Shown here: one piece after another, positions 22,250-64,000 of the stretch
Numbering within the stretch: position 1 is the stretch's first letter
Layout of the letters: each line of letters opens with the position of its first letter
NCBI GenBank assembly: GCA_034440635.1
Contig: JAOTON010002228.1
Location: 224,001-288,000, forward strand
DNA from: Lepas anatifera
Lineage: Eukaryota > Arthropoda > Thecostraca > Lepadidae
Direction of reading: 5' to 3'
Length of the DNA: 64,000 bases
Position numbers and translations under genes: made by a program
Notes under the pieces: generated by a model
What the model saw: only the letters and a program-made list of their open reading frames with translations
Database searches by the model: none
Told to the model about the DNA's origin: nothing

Positions 22250-22259
22250 CCGCCACTGG

Positions 22260-23740: not shown

Positions 23741-23744
23741 TTAA

Positions 23745-26760: not shown

Positions 26761-26787
26761 CCTCCGTGCCCCCCGCCCCCGAAACGA

Positions 26788-31125: not shown

Positions 31126-31151
31126 CACCTCCGTGCCCCCCCCCGAAACGA

Positions 31152-35710: not shown

Positions 35711-35738
35711 ACCTCCGTGCCCCCCGCCCCCGAAACGA

Positions 35739-40102: not shown

Positions 40103-40647
40103 AATTATATCAAAATAAAAACTGTATCATTGTTTCATGCGAAGTTATTGACCTAAGTCTGAAAACTGCTTAAGTAGCCCCAGATAACCTCTCAAAGGTC
40201 ATAGGTCAGAAATTGCAGCATGAGCCTGAAAGGGGGCCCAGGATACTACGAGTTGGAGAATATGAAGTTATTATCAGCTGTATCTACACAACACAGCCCA
40301 ATTTATGTTTTTCCCATGTAATTCCAATGGAGAGGTCATATTCCGTACATGGCCTTACATCATCAATATTAAAAATCCTGGAACAAGTTTTGTAGTAATC
40401 GGTGGGCCCATTATGTGGTATAAGTTTCAATCCGATAGATTCACCAATTTCTTACTTATGCTACTTGAAATAAATTATTGAGGTGAGGTCACTTGACCTG
40501 AGATGTCTCAACCTTAAATTTTGGAAGACGTTGCGGGGTTCATAAAAAATAAGGTGTGCCAAGTAAGGCGGCGCTTTGCGCCACTGTTTTTTCGTGCGCC
40601 GGAAAAAACCGAGGGGGTGTTTAAACACACCCTCACCGGGGCGAGGG
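40103..40647 (+). mobile_element. piggyBac-like element P1, 3' half
   Basis: atcaaaataaaaactg continues the family where 24147 left off (compare 49215 in P4). It runs through aggatactacga...ggagaatatgaag, tccaatggagaggtcat and ggcggcgctttgcgcc, to caccggggcgagggttta: the expected inverted end, with ttta in place of ttaa. From 40272 it belongs to the left arm of the large inverted duplication; its copy is at the window's right edge. Confidence 0.7.
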
Positions 40648-41088
40648 TTTACGCCCTCATTATCGAAATTCGACTTCCAGGTTTACCCAAACATTACTGT
40701 AAAATTCCAATGAGGCACATGCAGCCGCGGTAATGCAGATTTGATATTAGAACACGGTAACTCGAGTACACATATTCTGGCTTTTTAGGAAGGCACAAAC
40801 GGCTGTGGAGGACCACTGAAACCGTATCAACGGGATTTCCTGTGATACGAAAAAAGCTTTGGCGATGTAGCTCTGGTTCCCTAGTAATGCATGATGGCAC
40901 TCATACAAAGGAATATAAACAATGAACATTCCTGCTTGAAAAATCAAATTTAGTGCAATGATTTAGTAAAAGTCATTTGATTCAAAATATCAAATCGCAA
41001 TAAGAGGTCACAGTAGTAAAGACAATTGCTTTAGCAGGGTGGAATTCCATGAACGGTTCTGTTTTTTTTTGTCCAAAGCACGCTATAA

Positions 41089-41364
41089 ATGAAAGCGAGA
41101 AAGGTCGCCGCGATAGCTCGTTTTCTATTGCAGCAATACGCAGATTTTAGTGGGTTTCGAGAAACCTCACCACTTATGACCAAAAATACCCCTCGAAACG
41201 CAGGTCGGCTAGCATCCTACCATGATGGTGAGATGTATTTTGCATTTCATAGTAGAGTCTGGCTGGTCCGGGTCAGTGAAATAAACGCGACGGCGGCTTC
41301 AAGAAGGGCTCCGACTGAGCAGTGCCAGGCCAGCGGGCCAGCAGTGGCTGCTGGACGTCCTTAG
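41089..41364 (+). other. 91-codon open frame conserved in both arms
   Basis: The frame contains ARFLLQQYADFSGFRETSP, then YHDGEMYFAFHSRVWLVRVSE, and is repeated at 63158-62868. A 2-bp indel after SEINAT makes the two C-termini differ. It has no recognised domain. Conservation only reflects the recent duplication, so this is not evidence for a gene. Confidence 0.2.
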
Positions 41365-41495
41365 AAGCGCCTGCTAATTGCCAGCGACGTCAGCCGACAG
41401 ACCCAGGCTTCGATTCAGCGGAGGTGAGATCAAACGTCCGGCCTCCAGACCAACGCACCACAACACCGCCAAATCTCTGTTGTCTAACTCTGCAC

Positions 41496-41503
41496 GTCGA
41501 GAG
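41496..41503. repeat. Target site duplication of E1 (gtcgagag)
   Basis: gtcgagag before TAGGGTGACCCC and atcgagag (45573-45580) after the mirrored end: seven of eight bases match. Confidence 0.7.
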
Positions 41504-41760
41504 TAGGGTGACCCCTTTTACAACTTTTGTTTGAAAATACTGCTTCCAGGGTGTTTTCTAATGTATTCTGGGGCGCTGATTCCGAATATGACCTCAGAAT
41601 TGCAAATTTGTAAAATTTCGAGACCGCGCATGACGAATGAAAATTCTCACAAATACCAAATTTCGAGCATTTGACTGCGTAAGGTCAAAATCGGTCAGCA
41701 AAGCAGTTATGTTACCCATCTCGCGGTATTTCTGATAGTTTGCAGTCATTTCAGCATTAA

Positions 41761-42952
41761 CCCTTGCCCCGGTGGCGGGTACGAGCCACCTTCGCCCTGG
41801 TGGGGGGGGCTAAAAAAGACCCCACGATCTCAAAAACTAAGAGAGCTAGAAAAAAACGCAAAACGGCAATCGAAAGCTCTTCGAAAATGATATCGAAAAT
41901 GTTTTGGTCATTTTTCTTGTCAGGTCAATATCAAGGTCACCAGAGGTCAAAATAGGTCAAAATCGCTAATATAAGGTGTACTAAGAAAACCTCATATATC
42001 TCAGAAACCATAATAGCTAGAAACATTTTTCTAACACCATTTGAAAGCGCTTGAGATGTGCTTCCATTACAGTGGCATTTATTTTCGTGTCAGGTCAAAG
42101 CCTAGGGAGCTACAGGTCACTAAATATTGGGCATATTCTTGGGAATGTCCATAGCCACCCATGCATAAGGGCGTTTACTATTTCGCTAATAGCTTCCAAA
42201 CCAAACAAGATACAGCCATAGTTTATGCACCATTGCAATCCTCTCGTCAATACGAATCGAATGATATATGATATTGCTATGCCAGGTCAAATTTAAGAAT
42301 TTGACCTGACCCAGGTCAACGGTCTGACCCAACTTGACCTGGTATAGTCATGATGTATATCATTTGACTTCCAGTGACTATACAAACACTTTGGTGACAA
42401 AATAAAAGCTCTATCTTATTTTATTCAAAATTTATAGAGAAAAACACCAAAAATGCTTATTTGACCTAAGGTGACCTTTTAAAGGTCACAAGTCAAAAAT
42501 TTTGGGATCAGCTCCAGAAATTTGCTAAGAGCGAGTCGCAACCGATGTTTGAAGTTGATTCCATCCATACTTACTGAGAAAAGCTCATTTCGTGATTTCC
42601 CCATGTATTGACAATGGGGAGGTCATGCTCTGCACATGACCTTAGGTCACCAATATCAAAAATCCCGGAACAAATGTTGTATCTCCTGGTGGGTCCAGTA
42701 TGTGGTATGAGTTTCAACTTGATCAATTAACCCTTCTTTTAGTTATGTGGTCCTAAGTATTTTTTGAGGTGAGGTCACTTCGCCTGGCCTGGTGACCTGA
42801 CCTGATATGACCTTGAGCCAAAATTTTTCAGTAAAGATGTAAAAATGATAAAGGAACAGCTAGACCAAGTTTGGCGGCGCTGCGCCCCGCCGTTTTTGGT
42901 CACTTCGGAAAAACCCGAGGGGGGTCTAAAAATACCCCCACCCGGGCGAAGG
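41761..42952 (+). mobile_element. piggyBac-like element P2 (1192 bp), complete
   Basis: Flanked by ttaa on both sides (41757-41760 and 42953-42956). The ends CCCTTGCCCCGGTGG and, inverted, CCTTCGCCCGGGTGG are imperfect terminal inverted repeats. Three paralogous places have the uninterrupted ttaa: 45318 region, 56058 region and 58421-58424 (ggatgttaatgctg or its complement). That shows insertion at TTAA with duplication, as known for piggyBac and Kolobok elements; the CCC start favours piggyBac. No transposase is encoded. It contains about 20 AGGTCA/TGACCT hexamers. Confidence 0.85.
41930..41959 (+). promoter_or_regulatory. Direct repeats of AGGTCA, including a DR4
   Basis: aggtca words occur at about 41931 and 41935-41941, then 41944-41949 and 41954-41959, the last two separated by exactly four bases (aaat). 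A DR4 is a known binding arrangement for several RXR heterodimers. Function is not shown. Confidence 0.5.
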
Positions 42953-43437
42953 TTAACATCCTGGGACAAGGTCATATATACTGTGTGCGACAGGGTTTTA
43001 AATATATCTCTTTTGTTGGCAGCACCAATCGCAGCGCCACCTGTGGAAATATTGAGAACATAGGTAATGCAATCCTACAGGCGTGGTGTCAACGAGGAAA
43101 ATAGCGAGAGTAAAACGACCTTTCTGTCATCGGGGTATCATTGTAACTGTATTCCAAAATTTACCACATTTGCCTCTGTGGGCAGTTGTCTATGGAATTG
43201 AATGGGCTGGTCTGAATTGCTGATCAGATTATTTCGATATTTACGGAAGCGCCAACAACTAACAAGTGCTTGCGAAACCAAATCATTGTTATGTTTCAAC
43301 TTTCGAAGCTTTCTCTTTATAGATCGACCACTGAAAGCACGTATTTCCGCTTTGAAACACCTTTCAAAAATCCTGCTGACCTTGGAAACAGAAGGGCTCG
43401 AAGACTGAATCAAGTGATCGTGCACATTAAATCTTGT

Positions 43438-43882
43438 CTAGTCAGTATTTGATAAACGCAAAAACATTCTCTTCAGTTGACTCCCGGAGACAACTGGATA
43501 TTTCGCTTCGTATCTGTCATGGGCAGCGTTACCCAGGATTGGATGCCCTGCTGTTAAAGAAGTGGCCGCCCTGCCGATTCGTGCCTTCCACAGCGGAACC
43601 TGCCTCTGGCGAAGGCACGAAGGCGAAGGCACTATTTTGCTGGACCACCTTCAGATTACTGTGCCTCAAACACCCCCGTTGCCGACTGGCCTGCTCAGCC
43701 AGATGGAGCGGGACGAGTATCAGATCCCACTTCGGTCTGATATCTACGACACATGGCACGTACACACACATCACGTAGGTGACCAGCGTCGACAGCGACG
43801 CAGTGAGGCCCTATGCCGTCTGCCACCTTGCCTGACGCATCTTGCCATGCTTTCTGTTGACCACAGTACCGACTTAATCTGA
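43438..43882 (-). pseudogene. E1 transposase tail, deleted copy (left half)
   Basis: The minus-strand frame reads HGKMRQARWQTA, VMCVYVPCVVDIRPKWDLILVP and NLKVVQQ, then jumps to PEAGSAVEGTNRQGGHFFNSRASNP. It matches the F1 fragment (HGKLSMARWYTA, VCVYVPLV, PLEVIQSS) and the opposed copy at 44340-44853, from which it differs by loss of about 110 codons, including the HTQ/NTQST-ER segment. Confidence 0.45.
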
Positions 43883-44339
43883 GAGTACCGCTCCAGCACA
43901 GTCGTACACCAGCTGAAGATGCGACCTAAACGTGACACGATTTTGGCAGTGTTGACAAGCCGTTATGCTTTATGACATTGAAGCATTTCACTCGCAGAAG
44001 GTGCACCTGTATATTGATAACCTTGGCTACTGGACCTAATCAAGCTGTTGGTCCGGTAGTGATGCCATCGAGGTGGCAGAGCAGAGCACAATACACCAGG
44101 TCTGCCTGGTGAAGCAGACACACCACTCGTTCGAGGCTACGGCCAACGGCCTGCTCCAACACTACCATTCATCCTACCTGCCAGGCTCTGGCATGATTCG
44201 TTCCGTCTCCGCCGACGATCGCAACCCTCAATATTGACCTCAGCTCCTGGAGGAATTCTAGGAGCTTGCGCGCGACCTCAGCACCAGTATACTTACTTTC
44301 CCATGTTAAATTCCCGTTGTAGAAGTCGCCTGGGTGCAG

Positions 44340-44853
44340 ATGTGCTATGCACCTTGGATATCAGATCAAAGTGGGATCTGATGCATGCCTTGCTCCATCT
44401 TTAGGGACAGTGACCTGAAGGTGGTGCAGGGAAGTGTCACCAGGAATTCCTACATGACTGGCACAAAAACCATCCCATTGGCTGCGCAGGGTGACCCGAA
44501 GGAATCAACCATTGCAGAAGCTGTCAGTCTGATCAAGCAAGTGCGCGGACACCGCGCCGAGCAGTCCGTCCGCCGCTTCCCAACGCCAGTCATAAACCTC
44601 AGTGCGATATGCCATACCGAAATGAACGACATTCGAGACGTTGCCACCTTAGCTGCTATTGAGCCGCACCAAACTCCTGGATGCCAACCAGCTAGATGAG
44701 TGTTTGGTAACGTGGCAAACGACTGGCGTGCCGAACAACACACAGTCCACTCAACGTGCAGTGAGATCAATGCCAGAGGCAGGTTCCGCTATCGAAGGCA
44801 CGAATCGGCAGGGCGGCCACTTCTTTAACAGCAGGGCAGCCAATTCTGGGTAG
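44340..44853 (+). pseudogene. E1 transposase tail, longer copy (right half)
   Basis: Plus-strand frames read DIRSKWDLMHALLHL, DLKVVQGSVTRNSYMTGTK, PLAAQGDPKEST, then in another frame LLDANQLDECLVTWQTTG, NNTQSTQRAVRSMPEAGS and RQGGHFFNSR. NTQST-R corresponds to PNHTQSTERAAK in F1, but the presumed catalytic Glu is Gln here, so an active enzyme is excluded. Confidence 0.5.
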
Positions 44854-45579
44854 CGCTGCCCAGGGCAGCTACGAAGCAAAATATCCAGTTGTCTCCGGGA
44901 GTGAAGTGGAGAGAATGTTTTTTGCGTCTACCAAATACTGATTCGACACCATTTAATGTGCACGATCACTTGATTCACTCTTCGAGCCCTTCGAATTCCA
45001 AGATCAGCAGGATTTTGGAAAGGTGTTTCGAAGTGGAGATACGTGCTTTCAATGCTCCATCTATAAAGAGAAAGCTCCATAGACAACTGCCCACGGAGGG
45101 AAATTTGGTAAATTTTGGAATACAGTTACAATGATACCCCGATGACAGAAATGTAATTTTACTCTCGCTATTTTCCTCATTAATACAACGCCTACTAGAT
45201 TGCATTACCTATCTTCTCAATATTTCCACAGGTGGCGCTGGGATTGGTGCTGTCAACAAAAGAGATATATTTAAAACCCTGTCGCACACAGTATATATGA
45301 GCTTGACCCAGGATGTTAATGCTGAAATGACTGCAAACTATCAGAAATACCGTGAGATGGGTAATATTACTGCTTTGCTGACCGATTTTGGGCTTACGCA
45401 GTCAATTGCTCGAAATTTGGTATTTGTGGGAATTTTCATTCGTCATGAGCGGTCTCGAAATTTTACAAGTTTGCAATTCTGAGGTAATATTCGGAATCAG
45501 CGCCCCAAAATACATCAGAAAACACCCTGGGAGCAGTGTTTCCAAACAAAAGTTGCAAAAGGGGTCACACTAATCGAGA

Positions 45580-46180
45580 GGTACTCATAAAACGCGTTTG
45601 ACTATTTAAGGAAAACCAAATATCTATGGCGTACGGTATTAATAATGTTTGGTCCTCGGCTGCTTGAATTGATGAATCATTGATGTGGTTTGATGTCTAT
45701 GAAACCATGAAATGGTAGCTTTTGATATAGATTTAAAACGTTGCCGAATATTTATAATACAACTCAGGAATAGACGGGAAATATTTGTTCTTTTGCTCAT
45801 ACCGGAAGCCGACATTGCACAAAAGCAAAGAAATGGGAATAGGGCGTTAATATCGTTCACGACGACCCCGGCTACCGGCAGGAAGACCACGGCTCTAGCT
45901 ACCGAAGCCATCTCAAGTGAGAGAGAGAGAGAGAGAGAAGCAATGAGATGGAGATATTTTGGCTGTAAACGGTCAGAAGACCTCGGAATTTTCGTCTGAA
46001 CTTTCTTTGTGGTTGAGTGGTTGGTTATGGGGCGCCACCACATCAGCTGAGACCTTCTACGTGGTTGCGTGGTTGGTTATGGGGCGCCACTACAGCAGCC
46101 GACCGTTACAGCGTCAGTCTTGCTGCCGAGTCTTGGCTGACGGAGACGTTGTCACCCCCTGCAGAGTTGAATGTATGTTA
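45580..46180. other. Arm sequence with (GA)n and a duplicated ~60-bp block
   Basis: A (GA)n tract (45917-45937) is shorter in the right arm. The block ggttggttatggggcgccac occurs twice, about 60 bp apart (46018 and 46072). No gene was recognised. Confidence 0.5.
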
Positions 46181-46375
46181 CGGGCAATATGGGATTTCAG
46201 GCATTTTGCGAACTGCCCAGGCATTTTGCAGGCTGCCCAGAAAGCAGGGCAGTTTGCGAACTGCCCGGCCATTTTGTTAGTTTGCAAACTACCTGGGCAT
46301 TTTGCATAGTGCCCGGCTCTCCGGTCATTTTACAAACTGCCCACCCGGCGGGCAGTTTGCAAAATGACCGGTGTT
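46181..46375. repeat. Clustered short palindromes gggcattttgc/gcaaactgccc
   Basis: About nine alternating copies of gggca-ttttgc and ttgc(g/a)aactgccc occur, in both orientations, so neighbouring copies can form hairpins of ~18-20 bp (for example gccggtcattttacaaact against agtttgcaaaatgaccgg). The mirror copy is at 55010-55200. Confidence 0.75.
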
Positions 46376-46719
46376 CACATGAATCGGAATGGCTGTAGGC
46401 TTAGATTGAAATTATAAAACAAAAAGGAAATGATTTGAGCCACGTGACAACAGGACTGGTGGAGGAACTAGGGGGCACCGGGGGCACATTGACCCCCTTA
46501 AATGAGAAACTTAAAAAACTATACCTATTGCTTTGAATGGAAAAAAATGTATTGAAAAGTCCATGTTGCCCCGTCTCCCCCTCGATCCGAACGTTTTGCC
46601 GCTCCTGACAGCACACGGTGGCCGTCCAAGAAGCGGCATGAATGCAACACTTTAGCGGGTTTGAAAATTGGGCGGCTAATTCTTCGTGACTATAGCCCAG
46701 AAAATGTACTTGAACATTG

Positions 46720-47698
46720 AAAACTCCCCTCAGATTTTCCGGTGGCACTGAAAAATGGCGGCGTGAACAATGCTATACTTGCCGTAGCCCATCGCTGATA
46801 AATTCCGCAGCTATTCTGAACATTTTAAACTTGGGTCATCTCGGTTAAGGTCATTAGACCAGGTCCAGTGGACTGCCCTAAAATGTTTCCGATTGCATTA
46901 GCCAGGACAGGATTAATCTATCGATCTGAAACTTACTACATAATGGGCCCACTCGGGGCCAAAAACGTATTCTAGTATTTTTTATTTCGTTGCAAGGGTT
47001 ATGGTGTCAGGTGCGAGGTACGAGTCATGATCTCCCCATTGTAAATGTATGGTAAAAACGCAAATTGGTTGAAAATTCTCTCAATTTTGGTCTATACGGC
47101 TTAGAAGACTTCTTACTCTTGGGATCATTTTTTCCTAGGCCACACGCAAGGTTCATTTCGCATATTTGACGTGTGACCTTTGCGAGGTCATTTGGGAATA
47201 CCTAAGCAGGTTTTGAGGCAATAACATCGCAGGAAATGGCGACAGATTTTCAGTTTGATACTGATTCTTTTGGATTGCCACTACGATTCGATTGATATGA
47301 TTGTTGACGATGTTTAGTCAGATAATAACATTGACCTGACCCTAGATTAGGTCATTTCTTTTTTCATAGTATGGTTGTGGTATACATCATTCGAATTCTG
47401 GTAATGAGAGGAATGAAATGGCCCTAAATGAAATATATGAATAGATATAATGCGATGAAATAAATTGACCCAGTCATTCGGTTGAAATAAAAAGTATTAT
47501 CAGAACATTATTTAATATATCTTGACCCCAATAATAGCCTGATAAAAAATGTTAGTGATACAGTTTCAGCCTTTTTTATGGGCAGCTAACCACTTCTCAC
47601 GTTTTTTCGTTGCCTCACTCGGGAGCCTAGTTCGGGGGAAGGTTGACAACTCCCCCCCACTTGGGTGAGGGTGGATATGAGGCCCACTGGGGCGTGGG
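46720..47698 (-). mobile_element. piggyBac-like element P3, 3'-truncated
   Basis: On the minus strand, after ttaa (47699-47702), it begins cccacgccccagtggg and runs through gagaagtgg, AGGTCA-type words and gtcacacgtcaaa-type text, to gccgccatttttcagtgccaccggaaaa. There the family similarity stops, without the usual end. The right-arm copy (53703-54675) additionally lacks its first ~23 bp. Confidence 0.6.
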
Positions 47699-47702
47699 TT
47701 AA

Positions 47703-48616
47703 AGGCCCTCGATGTAATGATTGCTCCCCCCGGTTTATATCTGCAGTTCTGTTTCACTTTAAATCGGCTCGCCAGTGTTGTGCCTGTTCAGGTTTCTTTC
47801 TTTTAGAGGGCTTTCCTGTCATCATGTGTCACGTCCAATATCAGCGGGCCGCGACCAGCATACATACGTCAATATTAGTTACCATTGCGATTTACAACCT
47901 ATTGCCATGGGTATGTGATTAGGAGGTCATCCCAGGCAGGCGTGCCACGGAACGTCATGGTACAATGGTACATGTACTATGTCAGGGAACATGTACCCTG
48001 TACGTACTGGTATACGACCATGAGGTAGCTGGACCGTCATCGATCCATTATTTATTTGCCTGAACAAAGCCACCAAACTCTACCCCTGGAGGGACACTTC
48101 TGACTCGACTGCACGCGCGGACGCATCTCCTGTGGTCTCTTGACCACTGAAGACTGACAATGACTTAAGAACTTTGATTCAGGCACAGAATGGATCGGCG
48201 TCGTTTCGACCTTGCACGTTTTGCCTGGTGTGTGTTGTTTTGTTTTCATACAGACAGCATGGGTATAAATTTATATATACAATCTAAATTCGATCCAATA
48301 CAACGCCGATTAGTGATCATAAAAGTGTTTGGATCACGATGGTAAAGCAGACCACTAGACAGACGAAAACGGCACCGTACTCCGAGAAGAAGAAAACCAA
48401 AACACAACGCGAGAAAGGTCGACTAGAACGAACTGAAACTAACACAAACAAGTACAAGCCGACTTCGAACCGTTACACCGAGACCAACTTCCCCCTCCGA
48501 TAAAAATGTTGGTACCCCAGAGACCAACTCTGGGAGCCCCGAAGACGAACTATTAAGACCCTCCGAGACAAGGATTCCGATGATGTCTGAGCTTACATAA
48601 TCAACTTTTGAAACAA
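47703..48616. other. Left part of the central spacer, unassigned
   Basis: Not part of either arm. No gene was recognised; frames at 48052-48249 and 48423-48698 have no recognisable domain. Confidence 0.4.
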
Positions 48617-49570
48617 TAACACCAGCCCCGGTGGGCCTCCGGGTCAGTGATGGTGGAACGTTCAAATATAGGAGGGGGGGTTCGCCATGGGCTTTCAACC
48701 CATCTCTTTCAAGTCAACGCCATAGGGCTAGTGATAAAATTTCTGGTTTAAAGGGGTCACCGTGCCGCGGTGACCCCTTCCTCCAGTCATTTCCACCGCC
48801 AGTGCTCCAAGCCACCTTTGCCCTATGGTGGGGATCGGGAGCTGTTCAAACACCCCCCCCGAACTCGGCTCCTATGCGGGATAGCGAAAAAACGCAAACG
48901 CTGTTGGATAGCTAATACAAATTCATGACGAAACTACATTTTTCATTTTTTGGCTCAGGCCAATATTGAGCTCATTACAGGTCAAAGAATGTGGCATGTT
49001 AGAAAAAGAGTTTCCGGGTTCTAGCTCTGACAGAGTGGATTTAGAACACTGGTTTAGGCACCATTCGCCTTCTCTCGTTACGGTGAATTGCATGATGTTT
49101 AATATGACTGTACTAGGTCAAAACAAAAATGACCTGACCTAAGGTCAGGTTAAGGTCACTATTCACCCTAGCATAGTTATGCATATCAATCGGCTCGCAA
49201 GAACAATACAAACGTAATAGAATCAAAATAAAAGCTTTATCATTTCCAGCAAAGCTGTTGACCCAAGCCTGAATCCAGCTTAAGCAGCTCCATATGACCT
49301 CTGAAAGGTCACATGTAAAAATTGCAACATGAAGCTGGAAAGGAGCCCAAGATACTACGATTAGGAGAATATGAAGGTCTTCTCAGCTGTATCTACACAA
49401 ATACAGCCCAATTTCTGTTTTCCCATTCATTTCCAATGGAGAGGTCATCTTCTATACCTGACCCTAGGTCATCGATATGGGATATTCCGGAATATTTTTG
49501 TAGTACTCGCTGGGCCCATTCTGTAGTATAAGTTTAATCCGATAGATTCACCCATTTCTTACTTATGGGG
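48617..49570 (+). mobile_element. piggyBac-like element P4, with a 180-bp internal insertion, 3'-truncated
   Basis: Begins agccccggtgggcctccggg and continues, after a ~180-bp insertion, with gccacctttgccctatggtgg. It then follows P1 closely: ctaggtcaaaacaaaaatg, ggagaatatgaagg, tccaatggagaggtcat. The end at 49570 lacks the terminal GC-rich block, and no ttaa is seen at the left end. Confidence 0.65.
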
Positions 49571-52330: not shown

Positions 52331-52339
52331 TTTTCTATC

Positions 52340-53240
52340 TCTTTGGGGTGCCCGAGCACCCCCAATCCTAAGTCAAGCACCCCCAATTATGTGCTGAGCA
52401 CCCCCAATACATGTGCCGCCCCTGGCTTATCACCGATACCCTTTAAGAGTGTCACCCTATCTCATTACTGCCACCCTGATTCGTGCCGCCCCTGTCAAGT
52501 TTTTCCCGTCCCGGGTTCATTACTTCCACTCGGATTGGTTCCACCTCTAGCTAATCAATGCCACCTGACTTATTCTTTCCCTCTGATTTATGACGCCACA
52601 TCACTGCCGCCCCCGCCTGATCACTGTCGCCAACAATTAAGCAATGCCGCCCCCCCGGATGATAACTGCCACCTTTTGTTCATCACTGATCAGCTGGCTG
52701 ATCACTGACACCCCTGGTTTATCACTACCGCCTTGATTTATGCCGCCCCTGGCTAAACACCCCGGTTTACTTCAATACCCATATACTTGCCCTTCCTGTT
52801 TAGTCACTGTCGCCCACCGAATCATCATTGCCGCCCCCAGCTGATCACTGTCGCCCCTCGTTTACTACTGCCGCCCCTGACTGATCACTGCCGCGTCCTG
52901 GCCGATCATTGCCGCCCCTTGACTGCTAACTACCGCCCCTGGCGGATGACTGCCGCCCCTGGCGGAAACTGCCGCTCCCTGGCAGATCAATGCCGCCCCT
53001 TGGCAGATCACTGCCGCCCACTGACTGATAGCTGCCGCCCCCTTGACTGACCACTACCGTCCCCTGGCTGATCACTGGCGCCCCCTGACTGATAACTGCC
53101 GCCCCTTAGCTGATTACTGCCGCCCCTGGCTGATCACTGCCGCCCCCTGACTGATCACTAGCGCCCCTGATTGATCACTGCCGTCCCTAAGTGCCACCCC
53201 CTGGCTCATAACTGTTGCCCCTGACTGATAGCTGCCGCCG
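52340..53240. repeat. ~22-bp minisatellite (gatcactgccgcccctg type)
   Basis: From about 52410, some 35 degenerate copies of ctgatcactgccgcccctga. They are preceded by gtgcccgagcacccccaat repeated three times in variant form (52351-52410), which resembles a transposon end. Confidence 0.8.
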
Positions 53241-53360
53241 CTTGACTGATATATATCCGCTTGTCATATATTCATCCTAGTAGTCTTTCACGTTTTACAT
53301 AACATCGAGTCTCATGTTACCTATAGTATCTGACTTTGGTATATCGTGTAAAATTGTCAG

Positions 53361-53702
53361 GAGAACTTTACCACAAACTTCTTCCGTAAGACTTTAGTGG
53401 TGTATCTTTGTTCTATCCGAATACCTCATTGAGTTCTTTGCATTTTGGCGGGAAAGTGTAAGAAGCCCCACGTATCTTTCAGATAAGAACACATTGGGAC
53501 CGTTCTAAGGCGAGAACCGGCACTCAGATGCATTGTTTTTTAGTTTCTTCGTAAAGAACCCAAAGAAGGGATAGCGGTTTCGAACTACTTCTCGGGAATT
53601 GTCTCAGCTGATTGTGCGCGTGCGTGACGCTGCGGGGCTGCGTCGCCATGGCAACACAACGACGCGACAGCGGATGGTTCATTTGCATTGGGAAGCTTCT
53701 TG
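53361..53702 (-). mobile_element. MITE X copy 2
   Basis: Reverse complement of 22999-23344, starting tcaggagaacttt and ending gggaagcttcttga. It stops exactly where the right arm of the inverted duplication begins (tccaccctcacccc). Confidence 0.6.
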
Positions 53703-56523
53703 ATCCACCCTCACCCCAGTGGGGGAGTTGTCAACCTTCCCCCGAACTAGGCTCCCGAGTGGGGCAACAAAAAACGTGAGAAGTGGAAAAAGGAAGAGAA
53801 GTTGCTGCCCATAAAAAAGGCTGAAACTGTACCACTAACATTTTTTATCAGGCTATTATTGGGGTCAAGATATATTAAATAATGTTCTGATAATACTTTT
53901 TATTTCAACCGAATGACTGGGTCAATTTATTTCATCGCATTATATCTATTCATATATTTCATTTAGGGCCATTTCATTCCTCTCATTACCAGAATTCGAA
54001 TGATGTATACCACAACCATGCTATGAAAAAAGAAATAACCTAATCTAGGGTCAGGTCAATGTTATTATCTGACTAAACATCGTCAACAATCATATCAATC
54101 GAATCGTAGTGGCAATCCAAAAGAATCAGTATCAAACTGAAAATCTGTCGCCATTTCCTGCGATGTTATTGCCTCAAAACCTGCTTAAGTATTCCCAAAT
54201 GACCTCTCAAAGGTCACACGTCAAATATGCGAAATAGACCTTGCGTGTGGCCTAGGAAAAAATGATCCCAAGAGTAGGAAGTCTTCTAAGCCGTATCGAC
54301 CGAAATTGAGAGAATTTTCAACCAATTTGCGTTTTTCCCATACATTTACAATGGGGAGATCATGACTCGTACCTCGCACCTGACACCATAACCCTTGCAA
54401 CGAAATAAAAATACTAGAATACGTTTTTGGCCCCGAGTGAGCCCATTATGTAGTAAGTTTCAGATCGATAGATTAATCCTGTCCTGGCTAATGCAATCGG
54501 AAACATTTTAGGGCAGTCCACTGGACCTGGTCTAATGACCTTAGCCGAGATGACCCAAGTTTAAAATGTTCAGAATAGCTGCGGAATTTATCAGCGATGG
54601 GCTACGGCAAGTATAGCATTGTTCACGCCGCCATTTTTCAGTGCCACCGGAAAATCTGAGGGGAGTTTTCAATGTTCAAGTACATTTGCTGGGCTATAGT
54701 CACGAAGAATTAGCCGCCCAATTTTCAAACCCGCTAAAGTGTTGCATTCATGCCGCTTCTTGGACGGCCACCGTGTGCTGTCAGGAGCGGCAAAACGTTC
54801 GGATCGAGGGGGAGACGGGGCAACATGGACTTTTCAATACATTTTTTCCATTCAAAGCAATAGGTATAGTTTAAGTTTCTCATTTAAGGGGGTCAATGTG
54901 CCCCCGGTGCCCCCTAGTTCCTCCACCAGTCCTGTTGTCACGTGGCTCAAATCATTTCCTTTTTGTTTTATAATTTCAATCTAAGCCTACAGTCATTCCG
55001 ATTCATGTGAACACCGGTCATTTTGCAAACTGCCCGCCGGGTGGGCAGTTTGTAAAATGACCGGAGAGCCGGGCACTATGCAAAATGCCCAGGTAGTTTG
55101 CAAACTAACAAAATGGCCGGGCAGTTCGCAAACTGCCCTGCTTTCTGGGCAGCATGCAAAATGCCTGGGCAGTTCGCAAAATGCCTGAAATCCCATATTG
55201 CCCGTAACATACATTCAACTCTGCAGGGGGTGACAACGTCTCCGTCAGCCAAGACTCGGCAGCAAGACTGACGCTGTAACGGTCAGCTGCTGTAGTGGCG
55301 CCCCATAACCAACCACTCAACCACATAGAAGGTCTCAGCTGATGTGGTGGCGCCCCATAACCAACCACTCAACCACAAAGAAAGTTCGGACGAAAATTCC
55401 GAGGTCTTCTGACCGTTTACAGCCAATATATCTCCATCTCATTGCTTCTCTCTCTCTCACTTGAGATGGCTTCGGTAGCTAGAGCCGGGGTCTTCCTGCC
55501 GGTAGCCGGGGTCGTCGTTAACGATATTAACGCCCTATTCCCATTTCTTTGCTTTTGTGCGATGTCGGCTTCCGGTATGAGCAAAAGAACAAACATTTTC
55601 CGTCTATTCCTGAGTAGTATTATAAAAATTCGGCAACGTTTTAAATCTATATCAAAAGCTACCATTTCATGGTTTCATAGACATCAAATTATATCAATGA
55701 TTCATCAATTTAAGCAGCCGAGGACCAAACATTATTAATACCGTACGCCATAGATATTTGGTTTTCCTTAAATAGTCAAACGCGTTTTATGAGTACCTCT
55801 CGATTAGTGTGACCCCTTTTGCAACTTTTGTTTGGAAACATTGCTCCCAGGGTGTTTTCTGATGTATTTTGGGGCGCTGATTCCGAATATTACCTCAGAA
55901 TTGCAAATTTGTAAAATTTCGAGACCGCTCATGACGAATGAAAATTCTCACAAATACCAAATTTCGAGCAATTGACTGCATAAGTCCAAAATCGGTCAGC
56001 AAAGCAGTAATGTTACCCATCTCACGGTATTTCTGATAGTTTGCAGTCATTTCAGCATTAACATCCTGGGTCAAGCTCATATATACTGTGTGCGACAGGG
56101 TTTTAAATATATCTCTTTTGTTGACAGCACCAATCCCAGCGCCACCTGTGGAAATATTGAGAAGATAGGTAATGCAATCTAGTAGGCGTTGTATTAATGA
56201 GGAAAATAGCGAGAGTAAAATTACATTTCTGTCATCGGGGTATCATTGTAACTGTATTTCAAAATTTACCAAATTTCCCTCCGTGGGCAGTTGTCTATGG
56301 AGCTTTCTCTTTATAGATGGAGCATTGAAAGCACGTATCTCCACTTCGAAACACCTTTCCAAAATCCTGCTGATCTTGGAATTCGAAGGGCTCGAAGAGT
56401 GAATCAAGTGATCGTGCACATTAAATGGTGTCGAATCAGTATTTGGTAGACGCAAAAAACATTCTCTCCACTTCACTCCCGGAGACAACTGGATATTTTG
56501 CTTCGTAGCTGCCCTGGGCAGCG

Positions 56524-57040
56524 CTACCCAGAATTGGCTGCCCTGCTGTTAAAGAAGTGGCCGCCCTGCCGATTCGTGCCTTCGATAGCGGAACCTGCCT
56601 CTGGCATTGATCTCACTGCACGTTGAGTGGACTGTGTGTTGTTCGGCACGCCAGTCGTTTGCCACGTTACCAAACACTCATCTAGCTGGTTGGCATCCAG
56701 GAGTTTGGTGCGGCTCAATAGCAGCTAAGGTGGCAACGTCTCGAATGTCGTTCATTTCGGTATGGCATATCGCACTGAGGTTTATGACTGGCGTTGGGAA
56801 GCGGCGGACGGACTGCTCGGCGCGGTGTCCGCGCACTTGCTTGATCAGACTGACAGCTTCTGCAATGGTTGATTCCTTCGGGTCACCCTGCGCAGCCAAT
56901 GGGATGGTTTTTGTGCCAGTCATGTAGGAATTCCTGGAGACACTTCCCTGCACCACCTTTAGGTCACTGTCCCTAAAGATGGAGCAAGGCATGCATCAGA
57001 TCCCACTTTGATCTGATATCCAAGGTGCATAGCACATCTG
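56524..57040 (-). pseudogene. E1 transposase tail, longer copy (right-arm counterpart of 44340-44853)
   Basis: Same frames as in the left arm, with VQGSVTRN changed to VQGSVSRN; the NTQSTQR motif again lacks the Glu. Confidence 0.5.
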
Positions 57041-57494
57041 CACCCAGGCGACTTCTACAACGGGAATTTAACATGGGAAAGTAAGTATACTGGTGCTGAG
57101 GTCGCGCGCAAGCTCCTAGAATTCCTCCAGGTGCTGAGGTCAATATTGAGGGTTGTGATCGTCGGCGGAGACGGAACGAATCATGCCAGAGCCTGGCAGG
57201 TAGGATGAATGGTAGTGTTGGAGCAGGCCGTTGGCCGTAGCCTCGAACGAGTGGTGTGTCTGCTTCACCAGGCAGACCTGGTGTATTGTGCTCTGCTCTG
57301 CCACCTCGATGGCATCACTACCGGACCAACAGCTTGATTAGGTCCAGTAGCCAAGGTTATCAACATACAGGTGCACCTTCTGCGAGTGAAATGCTTCAAT
57401 GTCATAAAGCATAACGGCTTGTCAACACTGCCAAAATCGTGTCACGTTTAGGTCGCATCTTCAGCTGGTGTACGACTGTGCTGAAGCGGTACTC

Positions 57495-57939
57495 TCAGAT
57501 TAAGTCGGTACTGTGGTCAACAGAAAGCATGGCAAGATGCGTCAGGCAAGGTGGCAGACGGCATAGGGCCTCACTGCGTCGCTGTCGACGCTGGTCACCT
57601 ACGTGATGTGTGTGTATGTGCCATGTGTCGTAGATATCAGACCGAAGTGGGATCTGATACTCGTCCCGCTCCATCTGGCTGAGCAGGCCAGTCGGCAACG
57701 GGGGTGTTTGAGGCACAGTAATCTGAAGGTGGTCCAGCAAAAAAGTGCCTTCGCCTTCGTGCCTTCGCCAGAGGCAGGTTCCGCTGTGGAAGGCACGAAT
57801 CGGCAGGGCGGCCACTTCTTTAACAGCAGGGCATCCAATCCTGGGTAACGCTGCCCATGACAGATACGAAGCGAAATATCCAGTTGTCTCCGGGAGTCAA
57901 CTGAAGAGAATGTTTTTGCCTTTATCAAATACTGACTAG
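57495..57939 (+). pseudogene. E1 transposase tail, deleted copy (right-arm counterpart of 43438-43882)
   Basis: Reads VCVYVPCVVDIRPKWDLILVP, NLKVVQQ, then PEAGSAVEGTNRQGG, with the same internal deletion as the left arm. Confidence 0.45.
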
Positions 57940-58798
57940 ACAAGATTTAATGTGCACGATCACTTGATTCAGTCTTCGAGCCCTTCTGTTTCCAAGGTCA
58001 GCAGGATTTTTGAAAGGTGTTTCAAAGCGGAAATACGTGCTTTCAGTGGTCGATCTATAAAGAGAAAGCTTCGAAAGTTGAAACATGACAATGATTTGGT
58101 TTCGCAAGCACTTGTTAGTTGTTGGCGCTTCCGTAAATATCGAAATAATCTGAACAGCAATTCAGACCAGCCCATTCAATTCCATAGACAACTGCCCACA
58201 GAGGCAAATGTGGTAAATTTTGGAATACAGTTACAATGATACCCCGATGACAGAAAGGTCGTTTTACTCTCGCTATTTTCCTCGTTGACACCACGCCTGT
58301 TAGATTGCATTACCTATGTTCTCAATATTTCCACAGGTGGCGCTGCGATTGGTGCTCCCAACAAAAGAGATATATTTAAAACCCTGTCGCACACAGTATA
58401 TATGAGCTTGTCCCAGGATGTTAATGCTGAAATGACTGCAAACTATCAGAAATACCGCGAGATTGGTAACATAACTGCTTTGCTGACCGATTTTGATCTT
58501 ACGCAGTCAAATGCTCGAAATTTGGTATTTGTGAGAATTTTCATTCGTCATGCGCGGTCTCGAAATTTTACAAATTTGCAATTCTGAGGTCATATTCGGA
58601 ATCAGCGCCCCAGAATACATTAGAAAACACCCTGGGAGCAGTGTTTTCAAACAAAAGTTGCAAAAGGGGTCACCCTACTCTCGACGTGCAGAGTTAGACA
58701 GCAGAGATTTGGCGGTGTTGTGGTGCGTTGGTCTGGAGGCCGGACGTTTGATCTCACCTCCGCTGAATCGAAGCCTGGGTCTGTCGGCTGACGTCGCT

Positions 58799-58806
58799 GG
58801 CAATTA
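58799..58806. repeat. 8-bp target duplication ggcaatta (left)
   Basis: Identical to 62863-62870. The left arm has the single unoccupied copy (taattgcc, 41375-41382). Confidence 0.85.
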
Positions 58807-59217
58807 CAGGGGGGCCAAAGTTTAGTTCCAACTAGTCTGGCAATCCCGTTGTGACGTCACCGCGAGTATGGCCGAGGGCATTTAGCGCTAAAAGTGCGGA
58901 ACGAAGGTGGTTTTCTAAAAAAATATTAAAAATACTTGTAGCCCCTTTAGAGATGTGATTTTCAGTCAGCATAAAGCTGCAACATTTTCTTCCCCAAAAC
59001 TGGCCTCAAATAGTGCCAGACAGACGCAATTTCTGATCTGAGGGCATCCATCTAAGGGCATATCAGGCTTTTCCTAAGGCCGACTTCCAACATAGTCCCG
59101 GGGCAGAATCGCCCTTATTGGTGTTATCTTCAGTCAGAGAGCTGGGAATACGATCGACCACTGCAAAACATGGAAGGGCTGCGGGTTGTCGCCGAAAGGA
59201 AGGCCGATACTGATGTC

Positions 59218-59490
59218 TTAGGCGGCACATGCTGATGGCATAGGCGGATGCAGGGGGCTGATGGCATAGGCGGATGCAGTAAGTAGGGTGATGGCATAGG
59301 CGGATGCAGGAGGCTGATGGCATAGGCGGATGTAGGAGGCTGATGGCATAGGCGGATGCAGTAGGCTGATGGCATAGGCGGATGCAGGAGGTTGATGGCA
59401 TAGGCGGATGCAGGAGGCTTATGGCATAGGCAGATTCAGGAGGCTGATTGCATAGGCGGATGCAGAAAGCTGATGGCATAGGCGGATGTA
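59218..59490. repeat. 26-bp minisatellite with CATAGGCGGATGCAG
   Basis: About eleven copies of gatggcataggcggatgcag plus gaggct (for example 59290 and 59316). CATAGGCGGATGCAGG differs by one base from the hAT tip CATAGGCGGATCCAGG of the 50-bp satellite. Confidence 0.9.
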
Positions 59491-59519
59491 TCGACCAAGG
59501 TACTTCATTATAAGGAGAG

Positions 59520-60580
59520 GACTCACTGGCAGAGGCGCATGCAGGGACAACGGCAGATGCAGAGGGCAGATCGGAACGATTGCGAAAAGACGGATAGTGA
59601 CAAGGGCGGATTCAGGGAGAGAAAGGTCGAAGGGGGCAGTGGCAAATCAAGGGGTAGAGGCAGATGCAGATGTAGGGGCGGATGGAGGAGCAGAGGCAGA
59701 TAAATGGACAGAGGCGGAGGTAAAGGGAGGGACGAATGGAGGGGCACATGAGGATGCAGACAGCTGCAGTGCCTGCAAGGGACAGGCAAAAGCAGGAGAC
59801 AGGGGCAGAAGCAGGAGACAGAGGCGGATGAAGGAGACAGAGGTTTATTCAGGAGCAGAAACAGCAGCAGAGGCAGATACGGTGGCAGTGAGCAGTGGTG
59901 GATCTAGCCGGTCGGTTTGGGAGGGGCAAATCAAAGTCGCAAAGCAAAAGAAAAAAACGTTACGCAGTTAAAAAACGCTACAATATGACTTCCCAGTATA
60001 ATTTTCGGTATGTGAAGCGAAAAGCAAAAAAAAGTCACTGGGTGAAAGATATGGGCTGAAGATTCTTTTTCCCCTCCAAGGCCCCAAATGTCCACTGAAC
60101 TTAACAGGTTCTGTTTGAAGTTGAGAGTTGAGGCACCAAAATTTTGCTTTCAAACTAAAAAGGAGTCGGGGAAAAAGGAGTCCTATCGCTTGGGGGAAAC
60201 ATAGTTTTGCCCCGAGATTTTCCGTTTGGGGGGCAAATGCCTTTTTGCCCCCTCCCCTGGATCCACCACTGGCAGTGAGATGGAGCGGCAGAGGCGGGTG
60301 CATGGGGAGAGGTGGATGCAGGAGCAGAGGTGGTGCAAGGGCAGACAGAGATAGGGGGCAGAGACGGATGCAGGGTCAAAAGCGGATACAAAAGAGAGAG
60401 GCCGATGTGCAGGCAGGGGCGGGTACAGAGGACAGAGGCAAATGCATGATGCCTTCTCATGCTGAGCCTCAGCGGAGGGAGGACCAGGATATCTGATGGT
60501 AGGATATTCCAGATGGAATTGGGGCTTTGCCAATTATGCACCTGAAAGAACATTGTTGAAGAAAGGGCAGAGGCGGAGCC
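59520..60580. repeat. Degenerate gcagaggcggatgcaggg repeats around a MITE
   Basis: Irregular repeats of cagaggcggatgcaggg, gcagatgcag and similar run from 59520 to 59892 and from 60280 to about 60580. They are an older relative of the 26-bp array. Confidence 0.7.
59893..60271. mobile_element. 379-bp hAT MITE with perfect 8-bp target duplication
   Basis: Starts CAGTGGTGGATCTAG and ends CTGGATCCACCACTG, giving good terminal inverted repeats, and is flanked by gcagtgag on both sides (59885-59892 and 60272-60279). It has gaggggcaaa / tttgccccctc just inside the tips. No coding capacity. This is the clearest hAT insertion in the window. Confidence 0.9.
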
Positions 60581-62862
60581 AGGATAAAAGTGTTAAGAAC
60601 CCATGCTGGATTTTCATTATCAATAGAGCTATAATATTGCCTGAATTTAAGCATGTGCCATTAAAATTCCCTTTATCATTTTTCACCTAATTATTTTGCA
60701 TTATATCCCAACCAAAGTGCTGCAATACCATGGAATAGAGACACCATGGTATCTCTATTCCATGGCAATACCATAGAAAGTATTCTGAGCAGTGACATAT
60801 TCAACTAAAAATTACAAAGGTGTACATTATATTATTGAAGCATTATATAAGCTGCAAATCCAACTGAAACCCATAATGTCCCTTTCACTGGCTCTTGATA
60901 CAAAGATATCAGCAAATAATTATAGCTGCATTCAAGTACTATGTCATGCCTTCGCAGCTTAGTTGTTTCCAGGTGCATGGTGAATGAAGGTCAAAGGATG
61001 CACAACCTCCTCCTATCATCTTGTACCTCCTCTCTGACTGAGGGCAGAAATGTGACCATCAGGACATGACCTCAAACACATGACAAACTGGAAGTTAATG
61101 TCTCACCATTCTAAAAAAAAACAAGCAAAATGTAAACCATGTCGTGTCAAATGCAATGTCAAAGAATATATGCCTACAGTGCAACACTATGTGTTAAAAT
61201 TCAGTGTTGTCTTGTGTTCAGTATCATCAGTGATAATGGAATATGAAAAGTCTTCTGTCATGTGTGGGTATACTCTGAAATTTGTTGATAATTTGAAATT
61301 GATGCAGCTTCAACAAACATCAAAGTAGCATCATGAGACACAAACCAACAAGGTTGAAAGTTCCTTCACCTCAGAAGCTTATCCATAGCACATGACAATG
61401 CAGCTTCATCAGCAAGCCCCTGTTCTTAAACTAGGAGTCAATGCTCTGGTCATTTTTTGTTGCAGCATCTGAGCACTTATGTGTGTATTTGCTAAATGAT
61501 ATAACGCATGTTTTTATTCCATTTGTCATAAAATTGGAACCAAGTAATATACTCCATACTTTAACATAGTAAGATAGAAAGGTGACCATAATGAATAGAA
61601 ATTATCCATATGAATTTATATTTCTGAATTTGAATCTATTTGGATGTGCTTGAGTTCAGAAAATTGAATTCACAATAGGTTGGTAAATTGTTGATTGGCT
61701 CTTGCTTATGAAATCGTGGATCCCAAATATTCAGTGTGATCATGCATTCTGACAAAGCATTAAATATGAATCTTCATGTTGGTATTAGATAACTGGAAAA
61801 TTATTTGCCATAGTGTGAGCAATGACAAGCAAACTCACTCTGACAAATAATTTTCCTGACCATTTGAGAGCCGACAACTTGCAGAGCACATTATGAAGGA
61901 AATAATTTTATCAGATTTTGCTGATCTGAAGGATCTGGTGGATGGATATACCTAAATGTATAATCACATTGAATTTTCTATATTTGCATCCAGGGTTGTA
62001 TGGGGAGGCCAAGTAACAACTTATAATACTCATATATACATATAGAGCAGCTTAATACTTATAATATAGAGCAGCACTGTAAAAGTCATCAGTAGGTATC
62101 TGAAATAATTTACAAAACTTGACCTCCCTCTCTCCTATTAGCAAACTTCTGTGATTACACTGCTTAACATATCAGTTTGTTTCACCTTTCTTAACATTCT
62201 TAACTTCAAACTGCAATTTCCTCTTGAAATCAGTGCCCATTAATGAGCACATACCAAGAAATTGTAAATAAAAAACATCGCTATCTTCCATTTGGACCCA
62301 TCTTCAGAGATTTCATATTCCACAAATATCTAAACATACGTGCTCTCGTTGAGCGATTTGTTTTAGCCTTAGTCATTGACCTTTCTGCATCCTAGAACGA
62401 CAGAGTAATGCACTATGCTCTCATAAATTTCAATGTCATATGTAGCCCCTCATAAAAAGTGAACTTTCTAACCACAACCAGTCTTTTAGCCCTTTCACCG
62501 CCACCACACACAACAAAACCAAACGGTCACACAGGCGATCACCCTTGCATTTGCAATTTCAGAACAAAACACAAAAGATCAACAACGTAAATGTATGCCT
62601 CAGTTGCGCAGAAATAGCAAGTCTGGTACATCTAGTATCAAACCAGCTTAAGACATACTGGATCTGCAAAAAACATACTGCTTTAAATAAAACCTATGTA
62701 TTGCAAAGTATCGTCCTAATTTATCGAAAAAATTTCATTTTAGGTGAACGTTTTGAAGAAAATGTAAATATTTTGTTGTGAGCAAGATTAGAATAATTTA
62801 CCGTAAAGTGCTAGTAGGTCCTTGGTAGAAGACTTTGACCAACCTTATCTTTTAGGGTCTTG
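60581..62862. other. AT-rich part of the 4056-bp insertion, no recognised gene
   Basis: A small local palindrome (ataccatggaatagaga repeated inverted at 60727-60770) is present. Frames at 61080-61328 and 62545-62781 show no recognisable domain. Confidence 0.45.
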
Positions 62863-62867
62863 GGCAA

Positions 62868-63158
62868 TTAGCAGGCGCTTCTAATGACGTCCGGCAGCCA
62901 CTGCTGGCCCGCTGGCCTGGCACTGCTCAGTCGGAGCCCTTCTTGAAGCCGCCGTGTCGCGTTTATTTCACTGACCCGGACCAGCCAGACTCTACTATGA
63001 AATGCAAAATACATCTCACCATCATGGTAGGATTCTAGCCGACCTGCGTTTCGAGGGGTATTTTTGGTCATAAGTGGTGAGGTTTCTCGAAACCCACTAA
63101 AATCTGCGTATTGCTGCAATAGAAAACGAGCTACCGCGGCGACCTTTCTCGCGTTCAT
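62868..63158 (-). other. 96-codon open frame, right-arm copy of 41089-41364
   Basis: Same protein text as the left arm up to SEINAT, then a different C-terminus because of a 2-bp indel. No recognised domain. Confidence 0.2.
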
Positions 63159-64000
63159 TTATAGCGTGCTTTGGACAAAAAAACAGAACCGTTCATGGAA
63201 TTCCACCCTGCTAAAGCAATTGTCTTTACTACTGTGACCTCTTATTGCGATTTGATATTTTGAATCAAATGACTTTTACTAAATCATTGCACTAAATTTG
63301 ATTTTTCAAGCAGGAATGTTCATTGTTTATATTCCTTTGTATGAGTGCCATCATGCATTACTAGGGAACCAGAGCTACATCGCCAAAGCTTTTTTTCGTA
63401 TCACAGGAATTCCTGTTGATACGGTTTCAGTGGTCCTCCACAGCCGTTTGTGCCTTCCTAAAAAGCCAGAATATGTGTACTCGAGTTACCGTGTTCTAAT
63501 ATCAAATCTGCATTACCGCGGCTGCATGTGCCTCATTGGAATTTTACAGTAATGTTTGGGTAAACCTGGAAGTCGAATTTCGATAATGAGGGCGTAAACC
63601 CTCGCCCGGTTGAGGGTGTGTTTAAGCACCCCCTCGGTTTTTTCCGGCGGCAAGAAAAAACAGTGGCGCAAAGCGCCGCCTTACTTGGCACACCTTATTT
63701 TTTATGAACCCCGCAACGTCTTCCAAAATTTAAGGTTGAGACATCTCAGGTCAGGCCACCAGTGCAGGTCAAGTGACCTCAACTCCATAATTTATTTCAA
63801 GTAGCATAAGTAAGAAATTGGTGAATCTATCGGATTGAAACTTATACCACAGAATGGGCCCACCGATTACTACAAAACTTGTTCCAGGATTTTTAATATT
63901 GATGATGTAAGGCCATGTACGGAACATGACCTCTCCATTGGAATTACATGGGAAAAACATAAATTGGGCTGTGTTGTGTAGATACAGCTGATAATAACTT

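What the first reader, a model, noticed from the sequence alone, without database searches (positions are those of the whole stretch)
40272..64000. Giant recent inverted duplication whose arms record each other's insertions
Arms of ~6.2 kb of shared sequence flank a 6-kb centre. The left arm alone has a TTAA-flanked 1192-bp element; the right arm alone has a 4056-bp element with a perfect ggcaatta duplication. In each case the other arm is the intact empty site (58421-58424; 41375-41382). This dates both insertions after the duplication and gives near-proof of their target-site behaviour.
Basis: seen in the sequence. Interest (0 to 1): 0.85.

Follow-up and report, generated by a model that had tools for sequence, protein, structure and literature searches.

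The report
Inverted duplication carrying arm-specific mobile insertions
A stretch of what is probably an animal genome was copied backwards beside itself, and because mobile DNA later landed in one copy but not the other, each copy shows what the other looked like before; it is a clear example of ordinary genome rearrangement rather than a new kind of element.

Summary
In detail: inverted arms, a 1192-bp TTAA-flanked element in one and a 4056-bp GGCAATTA-flanked element in the other, each with the unbroken site in the opposite arm. The host contig shows a larger duplication: left arm 13,352-47,676, right arm 53,703 to 68,728 (4.7 kb past the window), 196 mismatches in 9,996 aligned columns. 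Homology stops at both ends, and no third near-identical copy of the outermost arm sequence or its flanks ranked in the searches, which argues against wrongly joined haplotypes. The right arm looks derived: it is cut inside a repeat that runs on from the left arm into the spacer and lacks two segments that are contiguous in other genomic copies. Best reading: a fold-back or template-switch inverted segmental duplication with a 6-kb spacer. Both elements belong to repeat families with matching target duplications. 'After the duplication' is well supported for the 4056-bp element, likely but unproven for the TTAA element, whose private changes exceed half of the inner-arm (1.35%) but not of the outer-arm (3.03%) divergence. 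New example of known kinds.

The parts
13352..47676 (+). Left arm of the inverted duplication (taken as the source copy)
   Evidence: self-BLAST of 134 kb of the contig; homology ends at 13352
53703..64000 (-). Right arm (taken as the derived copy); continues outside the window to position 68728 (contig C2084:292728)
   Evidence: cut inside a repeat at 53703
47677..53702 (.). Spacer between the arms; at least partly repeats (its 50400-52300 part matches the 39 other places scored, 87-93% for the best piece of each)
46171..49567 (-). Repeat copy straddling the left inner boundary (46171-47712 plus 48478-49567, interrupted by 47713-48477); the two parts adjoin in other genomic copies; the right arm keeps it only up to 53703
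   Evidence: six of six fetched copies L003-L008 adjoin within about 25 bp (L004 is interrupted further on)
53357..53703 (+). 347-bp dispersed repeat abutting the right arm's inner end; another copy in the left arm at 22996-23343 (97%)
41761..42952 (+). Left-arm-only 1192-bp TTAA element (presumed non-autonomous)
   Evidence: TTAA 41757-41760 and 42953-42956; 39 other full or near-full copies among the 40 places scored; flanks read in 20 of 40, the window copy included
58807..62862 (+). Right-arm-only 4056-bp element with 8-bp target duplication GGCAATTA (58799-58806, 62863-62870)
59893..60271 (+). Smaller element nested in the 4056-bp element, GCAGTGAG on both sides; also present in the C675 copy
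   Evidence: many copies jump from query 1086 to 1461, the C675 copy aligns through; flanks
41375..41382 (.). Empty site of the 4056-bp element in the left arm (TAATTGCC on the + strand)
58421..58424 (.). Empty TTAA site in the right arm
41501..45575 (.). Inner foldback element in the left arm (long inverted ends 90-93% alike, TCGAGAG on both flanks); its second end holds a further empty TTAA site at 45316-45319. Right-arm counterpart about 55802-58680
24152..40098 (.). Left-arm-only 15.9-kb insertion: head-to-tail units of about 4.4 kb with 50-bp minisatellite cores, splitting an element that is unbroken in the right arm (at 64165) and nearly so in the spacer copy (48852-49567)
15740..18360 (.). 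Left-arm-only 2.6-kb insertion; right arm is the empty site (no target duplication seen)
   Evidence: left edge: 22 other places of the surrounding repeat stop at 15743-15744 and a different 93-99% family (16 places) starts at 15764; right edge not tested
19600..22194 (.). Segment missing from the right arm (2-bp GC overlap at the junction)
   Evidence: 16 other places run unbroken over the full left-edge query, all 39 other listed places over the right edge
22506..23565 (.). Segment missing from the right arm (2-bp AC overlap at the junction)
   Evidence: all 39 other listed places run unbroken over the left edge; over the right edge 18 of 38 distant places do, the other 20 start beyond it

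Best explanation
This is a genuine, bounded inverted segmental duplication. Left arm plus spacer are in the original order. A broken or stalled end at the right edge of the spacer (now 53,702) was extended by copying the left arm backwards from position 47,676 out to 13,352, with two stretches (22506-23565 and 19600-22194) left out during copying or deleted later. This gives arm / 6-kb spacer / inverted arm, as in fold-back or template-switch inverted duplications. Later, mobile elements entered single arms: the 4056-bp element the right arm; the 1192-bp TTAA element, a 2.6-kb element and a 15.9-kb tandem array the left arm. The inner arms were probably homogenised by conversion after the TTAA insertion. 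Shown: the arms, their bounds in this assembly, the insertions and target duplications, the truncated inner end. Inferred: that the assembly is right, the copying mechanism, the conversion and the order of events.
For: Arms and bounds. The contig was read 43 kb left and 35 kb right of the duplication with no collinear continuation. Genome searches over both outer boundaries (best 40 candidates scored each) list the arm part only in this pair and no near-identical second copy of either flank. No N in the 134 kb. Right arm derived: it is cut inside a repeat that continues from the left arm into the spacer, adjoining in six of six fetched copies; missing segments are unbroken elsewhere, junction overlaps 2 bp. 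Insertions: 8-bp duplications perfect in 6 of 8 copies with both ends readable, the window copy included (7 and 6 of 8 letters in the other two); TTAA on both sides in 18 of 20 flank pairs read, the window copy included, of 40 places scored. Conversion: inner 86/6363 versus outer 110/3633, also for the outer block found only in the pair, 22/634, p = 2e-4; a 678-bp identical run, P = 0.002 under random placement. Spacer geometry as in PMC3907307 (abstract and passages).
Against: No reads were available, so the assembly itself is unproven. The 0-2 bp junction overlaps are close to chance; at the inner junction at most 1-2 bp are shared. Skipping in copying cannot be told from later deletion, and the cut inner end could also come from a later loss beside the 347-bp repeat. 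Within the large repeat of the outer arms the two arms are not each other's clear closest relatives: over 22195-22505 they differ by 14/311 (4.5%) while two other places are 96% over 22050-22700, and over 15600-15744 a third copy on the same contig is 99% to the left arm, the right arm 97%. So part of the outer divergence may reflect conversion or transposition rather than age. The TTAA copy's private changes could have been carried in.
Confidence: 0.75

Rival explanations
1. Assembly artefact: the arms are two haplotypes of one locus, joined head to head.
For: 1.3-3% divergence with large insertion differences is what a heterozygous animal can show between haplotypes (recalled); false duplications occur in assemblies (PMC9516828, start of abstract in the search listing only).
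Against: Haplotypes would stay alike outward; here homology stops on both sides, in flanks that are not shared. No N in the region. The right arm is cut inside a repeat and lacks two segments.
Confidence: 0.08
2. The duplication came from a small inversion with staggered breaks (chromatid or isochromatid model): the spacer was inverted and the staggered stretch was copied at both ends.
For: [quoted passage not shown]
Against: The repeat 46171-49567 runs in one orientation from the left arm into the spacer, apart from an insert, so at least the left 1.9 kb of the spacer is not inverted relative to the left arm.
Confidence: 0.12
3. Alternative transposition using transposon ends made the inverted copy.
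For: The right arm's inner end abuts the end of a dispersed 347-bp repeat without matching target duplication. Sister-chromatid transposition can give inverted duplications, and an end without matching duplication is predicted for reversed-ends events (PMC3744419, passages).
Against: The 347-bp repeat also lies on several of the contigs that carry the larger repeat, shows no target duplication in either copy read, and at the outer boundary the nearest dispersed repeat ends 22 bp outside.
Confidence: 0.1
4. The TTAA element was present before the duplication and was later cut out precisely from the right arm.
For: TTAA-specific elements of the piggyBac kind excise without a scar (recalled; search listing only). 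Its 1.60% private substitutions exceed half of the inner-arm divergence.
Against: They equal half of the outer-arm divergence (p = 0.89), and moved copies can carry older changes. Insertion into one arm is simpler.
Confidence: 0.2
5. One giant transposon with multi-kilobase inverted ends.
For: Long inverted arms around a spacer; much of both arms is repeat sequence.
Against: The outermost arm sequence was listed only in this pair; no target duplication seen at 13352/68728.
Confidence: 0.03

Closest known systems
Fold-back inverted duplications with a normal-copy spacer (human, PMC3907307; abstract and passages)
   Same: Original arm, few-kilobase spacer, inverted copy; some junctions lie in repeats.
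   Different: Here the event is interstitial with the contig continuing on both sides, and the inner junction shows at most 1-2 bp of shared letters.
Inverted duplications at inversion breakpoints (staggered-break models, PMC7584159; passages)
   Same: Inverted copies flank a central piece.
   Different: The central piece is, at least in its left part, not inverted relative to the left arm.
Palindromes with arm-to-arm conversion (human Y, PMC6790999; passages)
   Same: Inverted arms around a small spacer; inner arms more alike than outer arms, as conversion could give.
   Different: Arms still differ by 1.3-3% and carry large unshared insertions; four arm ORFs scanned gave no Pfam match above its cut-off.
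Related-empty-site evidence for transposons (method name recalled; the one search for the phrase, showed no paper holding it among the 6 listed)
   Same: A paralogous copy shows the uninterrupted target.
   Different: Nothing of principle; here two elements are reciprocal and one target exists four times.
Non-autonomous hAT-like and piggyBac-like elements (defining features recalled)
   Same: 8-bp and TTAA target duplications.
   Different: Inverted ends are weak or imperfect and no transposase was linked to either.

Membership tests
Fold-back inverted duplication (PMC3907307) | Normal-order spacer between non-inverted and inverted copies | tested here: met
   6-kb spacer contiguous with the left arm through one repeat
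Fold-back inverted duplication (PMC3907307) | Inverted microhomology of 2 bp or more, or homologous repeats, at the spacer/inverted junction | tested here: inconclusive
   at most 1-2 bp; a 347-bp repeat abuts the junction
Fold-back inverted duplication (PMC3907307) | Adjacent terminal deletion, translocation or ring | tested here: not met
   contig continues on both sides (1,224,378 bp); a translocation cannot be judged without an outgroup
Haplotype mis-join | Homology continues outward from both arms | tested here: not met
hAT superfamily (4056-bp element) | 8-bp target duplication | tested here: met
   6 of 8 copies perfect, window copy included
hAT superfamily (4056-bp element) | Short terminal inverted repeats | tested here: inconclusive
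   CAGGGGGGCCAAAG against CAAGACCCTAAAAG, 7 of 14 letters
hAT superfamily (4056-bp element) | Moved by a hAT transposase | not tested
   one ORF of the element was scanned with Pfam and gave nothing (61056-61325)
piggyBac (or Kolobok) superfamily (1192-bp element) | TTAA target duplication | tested here: met
   18 of 20 flank pairs TTAA/TTAA (one of them read with a one-letter shift), one TTAA/CTAA, one TTAT/TTAT; window copy included
piggyBac superfamily (1192-bp element) | Matching terminal repeats and related transposase | not tested
   ends CCCTTGCCCCGG and CCTTCGCCCGGG look similar but imperfect; no transposase was sought
Conversion-maintained palindrome | Homogenisation between arms | tested here: inconclusive
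   inner 1.35% versus outer 3.03% and 3.5% in the pair-only outer block; 678-bp identical run; rate differences not excluded

The most novel reading that the evidence does not exclude
The two arms are still exchanging sequence by conversion, and conversion tracts run up to but not across arm-specific insertions, so unshared insertions of several kilobases persist in arms that are otherwise being homogenised. The locus would then be a natural measure of how large heterologies limit conversion in a palindrome, with insertions older than the sequence around them.
Probability: 0.35. Interest if true: 0.5.

Novelty: new member of a known kind. Interest (0 to 1): 0.36.

Why it matters
It gives clean paired filled and empty sites for two repeat families, fixing their ends and target duplications. 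It also shows that in such pairs not every arm difference is an insertion: outside copies were needed to tell two missing segments from two further insertions. The gap between inner and outer divergence makes conversion around heterologies testable in one locus.

Tried and rejected
Giant transposon with long inverted ends: disfavoured, outermost arm sequence listed only in the pair. Haplotype mis-join: tested and made unlikely. The 347-bp repeat as a Helitron, hAT element or solo LTR: flanks of the two copies read did not fit (features recalled). Rfam and tRNA scans of the window: nothing at the thresholds used. Pfam on ten ORFs: only a 7tm_1 exon at 10091-10549 passed its cut-off. Two protein searches to place the host: best identities 79% and 54%, so no species placed. 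Spacer as a probe for a second haplotype: unusable, 50400-52300 is a repeat. The private-substitution clock is an upper bound only, since moved copies can carry changes; the 20 TTAA copies read were those most like the window copy. Left out of the divergence counts: 13,986-14,872, which holds tandem repeats; left out of the 4056-bp count: its minisatellite and nested element. The arms are multi-copy repeat in part: the first 1.5 kb of the right arm has many copies at 82-88%.
Full report
What was claimed and what is there. Self-comparison confirms this. With both inserts taken out the arms align over 6,198 columns with 79 mismatches and 12 small indels (13 gap runs were printed, one being my own mis-cut). 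The 1192-bp element lies at 41761-42952 between TTAA copies, and the 4056-bp element at 58807-62862 between GGCAATTA copies. The other arm holds the unbroken site in each case.

The duplication is larger than the window. The window is C2084:224001-288000 of a 1.04-Gb assembly of 2,126 contigs. I read 30 kb to the left and 40 kb to the right of the window. The inverted homology goes on in blocks to 13,352 on the left and 68,728 on the right. Over eight aligned blocks there are 196 mismatches in 9,996 columns; a stretch of tandem repeats at 13,986-14,872 was left out. No N occurs in the 134 kb.

It does not look like two haplotypes joined head to head. Haplotypes would stay alike outward, but beyond 13,352 and 68,728 only scattered matches remain. 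A genome search with 1,401 bases over the right outer boundary lists the arm part only in this pair, and for the flank part only a short dispersed repeat. The same search on the left, with 1,440 bases, lists the arm part in the pair only, and for the flank only a 393-bp dispersed repeat that ends 22 bp outside the boundary. Each search scores only its best 40 candidates and both lists were filled by the dispersed repeats, so weak or short copies could be missed; a near-identical second haplotype would have scored above them. Reads were not available, so this remains an argument from sequence.

Which arm is the copy. The repeat at the inner end of the left arm runs 46171-47712, is interrupted by about 765 bp, and goes on at 48478-49567 in the spacer. 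In the fetched relatives these two parts adjoin, within about 25 bp, in six of six loci (L003-L008; L004 is interrupted further on). The right arm stops inside this repeat at 53703 and abuts a 347-bp dispersed repeat. So left arm and spacer are most simply in original order and the right arm is the truncated copy; a later loss beside the 347-bp repeat is the alternative. This is the geometry of fold-back inverted duplications, where a normal-order spacer separates the two copies (PMC3907307, abstract and passages). It is not a full match: the event is interstitial and junction microhomology is at most 1-2 bp, so I say that it works like one, not that it is one.

The other large arm differences are of two kinds. 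Two are insertions in the left arm. The 15.9-kb array at 24152-40098 splits an element that is unbroken in the right arm and nearly so in the spacer's own copy. At 15740 the surrounding repeat stops at 15743-15744 in the 22 other places listed apart from the pair, and a different family begins at 15764 in 16 places (the right edge was not tested). Two others are losses in the right arm: the sequence across 19599/19600 is unbroken in 16 other places over the whole query; across 22194/22195 and 22505/22506 in all 39 other listed places; and across 23565/23566 in 18 of 38 distant places at 68-82%, while the other 20 begin beyond it. The losses have 2-bp overlaps, as has the 15.9-kb insertion; the 2.6-kb insertion has none. 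Overlaps this short are little more than chance. The losses may be skipped template or later deletions.

The two elements of the finding. The 4056-bp element is a repeat family with sharp ends; of eight copies whose two ends I could read, the window copy included, six have a perfect 8-bp duplication (one of them spread over two loci and read with a one-letter shift), one has 7 of 8 and one 6 of 8 letters. Its terminal repeats match in only 7 of 14 letters, so hAT is a likely label, not a tested one. The 1192-bp element is a homogeneous family at 94-96% to the window copy among the 40 places scored; I read the flanks of 20 of them, the window copy included, and 18 have TTAA on both sides, one TTAA/CTAA, one TTAT/TTAT. 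Each arm also holds an inner foldback element, so the TTAA target exists four times and is empty three times, one of these within the left arm itself. The insertion is therefore authenticated even without the large duplication.

Dating. Inner blocks differ by 86/6363 (1.35%), outer blocks by 110/3633 (3.03%), Fisher p = 2e-8. The outer block found only in the pair, 13,352-13,985, gives 22/634 (3.5%), p = 2e-4 against the inner blocks. In 1,500 columns near the inner end, with six outside copies, 8 changes are on the left, 11 on the right and 1 is unclear, so the arms change at similar rates there. The 4056-bp element has 31/3415 private substitutions (0.91%), between half the inner and half the outer divergence. 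The TTAA copy has 19/1191 (1.60%), more than half the inner divergence (p = 0.003) and about equal to half the outer (p = 0.89). The simplest order is: duplication; TTAA insertion; 4056-bp insertion; inner arms homogenised last. A 678-bp identical run has P = 0.002 under random placement. Against this: private changes are only an upper bound on age; precise excision of the TTAA element from the right arm is possible; and within the large repeat of the outer arms other genomic copies are as close to the left arm as the right arm is (two places at 96% over 22050-22700, against 14/311 = 4.5% difference between the arms over 22195-22505; a third copy on the same contig at 99% over 15600-15744 against 97% for the right arm).

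Verdict. The parts are of known kinds; the value lies in the paired sites and in the testable hint of conversion around insertions.

Noticed in passing
window 24152-40098: Head-to-tail units of about 4.4 kb, each with a 50-bp minisatellite of about 41-46 copies and, at most unit ends, a 78-bp tail block; the insertion begins at a unit start and ends with the tail block, with a 2-bp AC overlap at the target. How it entered is unexplained.
   Followed up: partly
window 285-1694 and 1-5669: Another palindrome (416-835 against 1239-1658, 96%) inside an element with inverted ends (-105 to 424 against 5136-5669, 91%) and a 540-aa open frame at 2107-3729; of 120 listed relatives the few with names are arthropod proteins.
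   Followed up: partly
C2084:1,025,340-1,033,398: Third copy of pieces of the large repeat that makes up window 15.6-23.3 kb, 96-99% alike, on the same contig about 790 kb away.
   Followed up: partly
window 22996-23343 and 53357-53703: 347-bp repeat with 44 further matches listed, some close together in opposite orientation, several on contigs that carry the larger repeat; no target duplication seen in the two copies read.
   Followed up: partly
window 10091-10549: Open frame on the minus strand matching the 7tm_1 receptor family above its cut-off, the only likely host gene exon among the ten ORFs scanned.
   Followed up: no
L013:3021-4388: 456-aa hAT-type transposase frame 5.6-7.0 kb left of the window; named relatives include zinc finger BED domain-containing protein 4-like of Hydra and insects.
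   Followed up: no
window 59893-60271: Small element nested in the 4056-bp element, flanked by GCAGTGAG on both sides; shared with the C675 copy, so it probably travelled with the larger element.
   Followed up: partly
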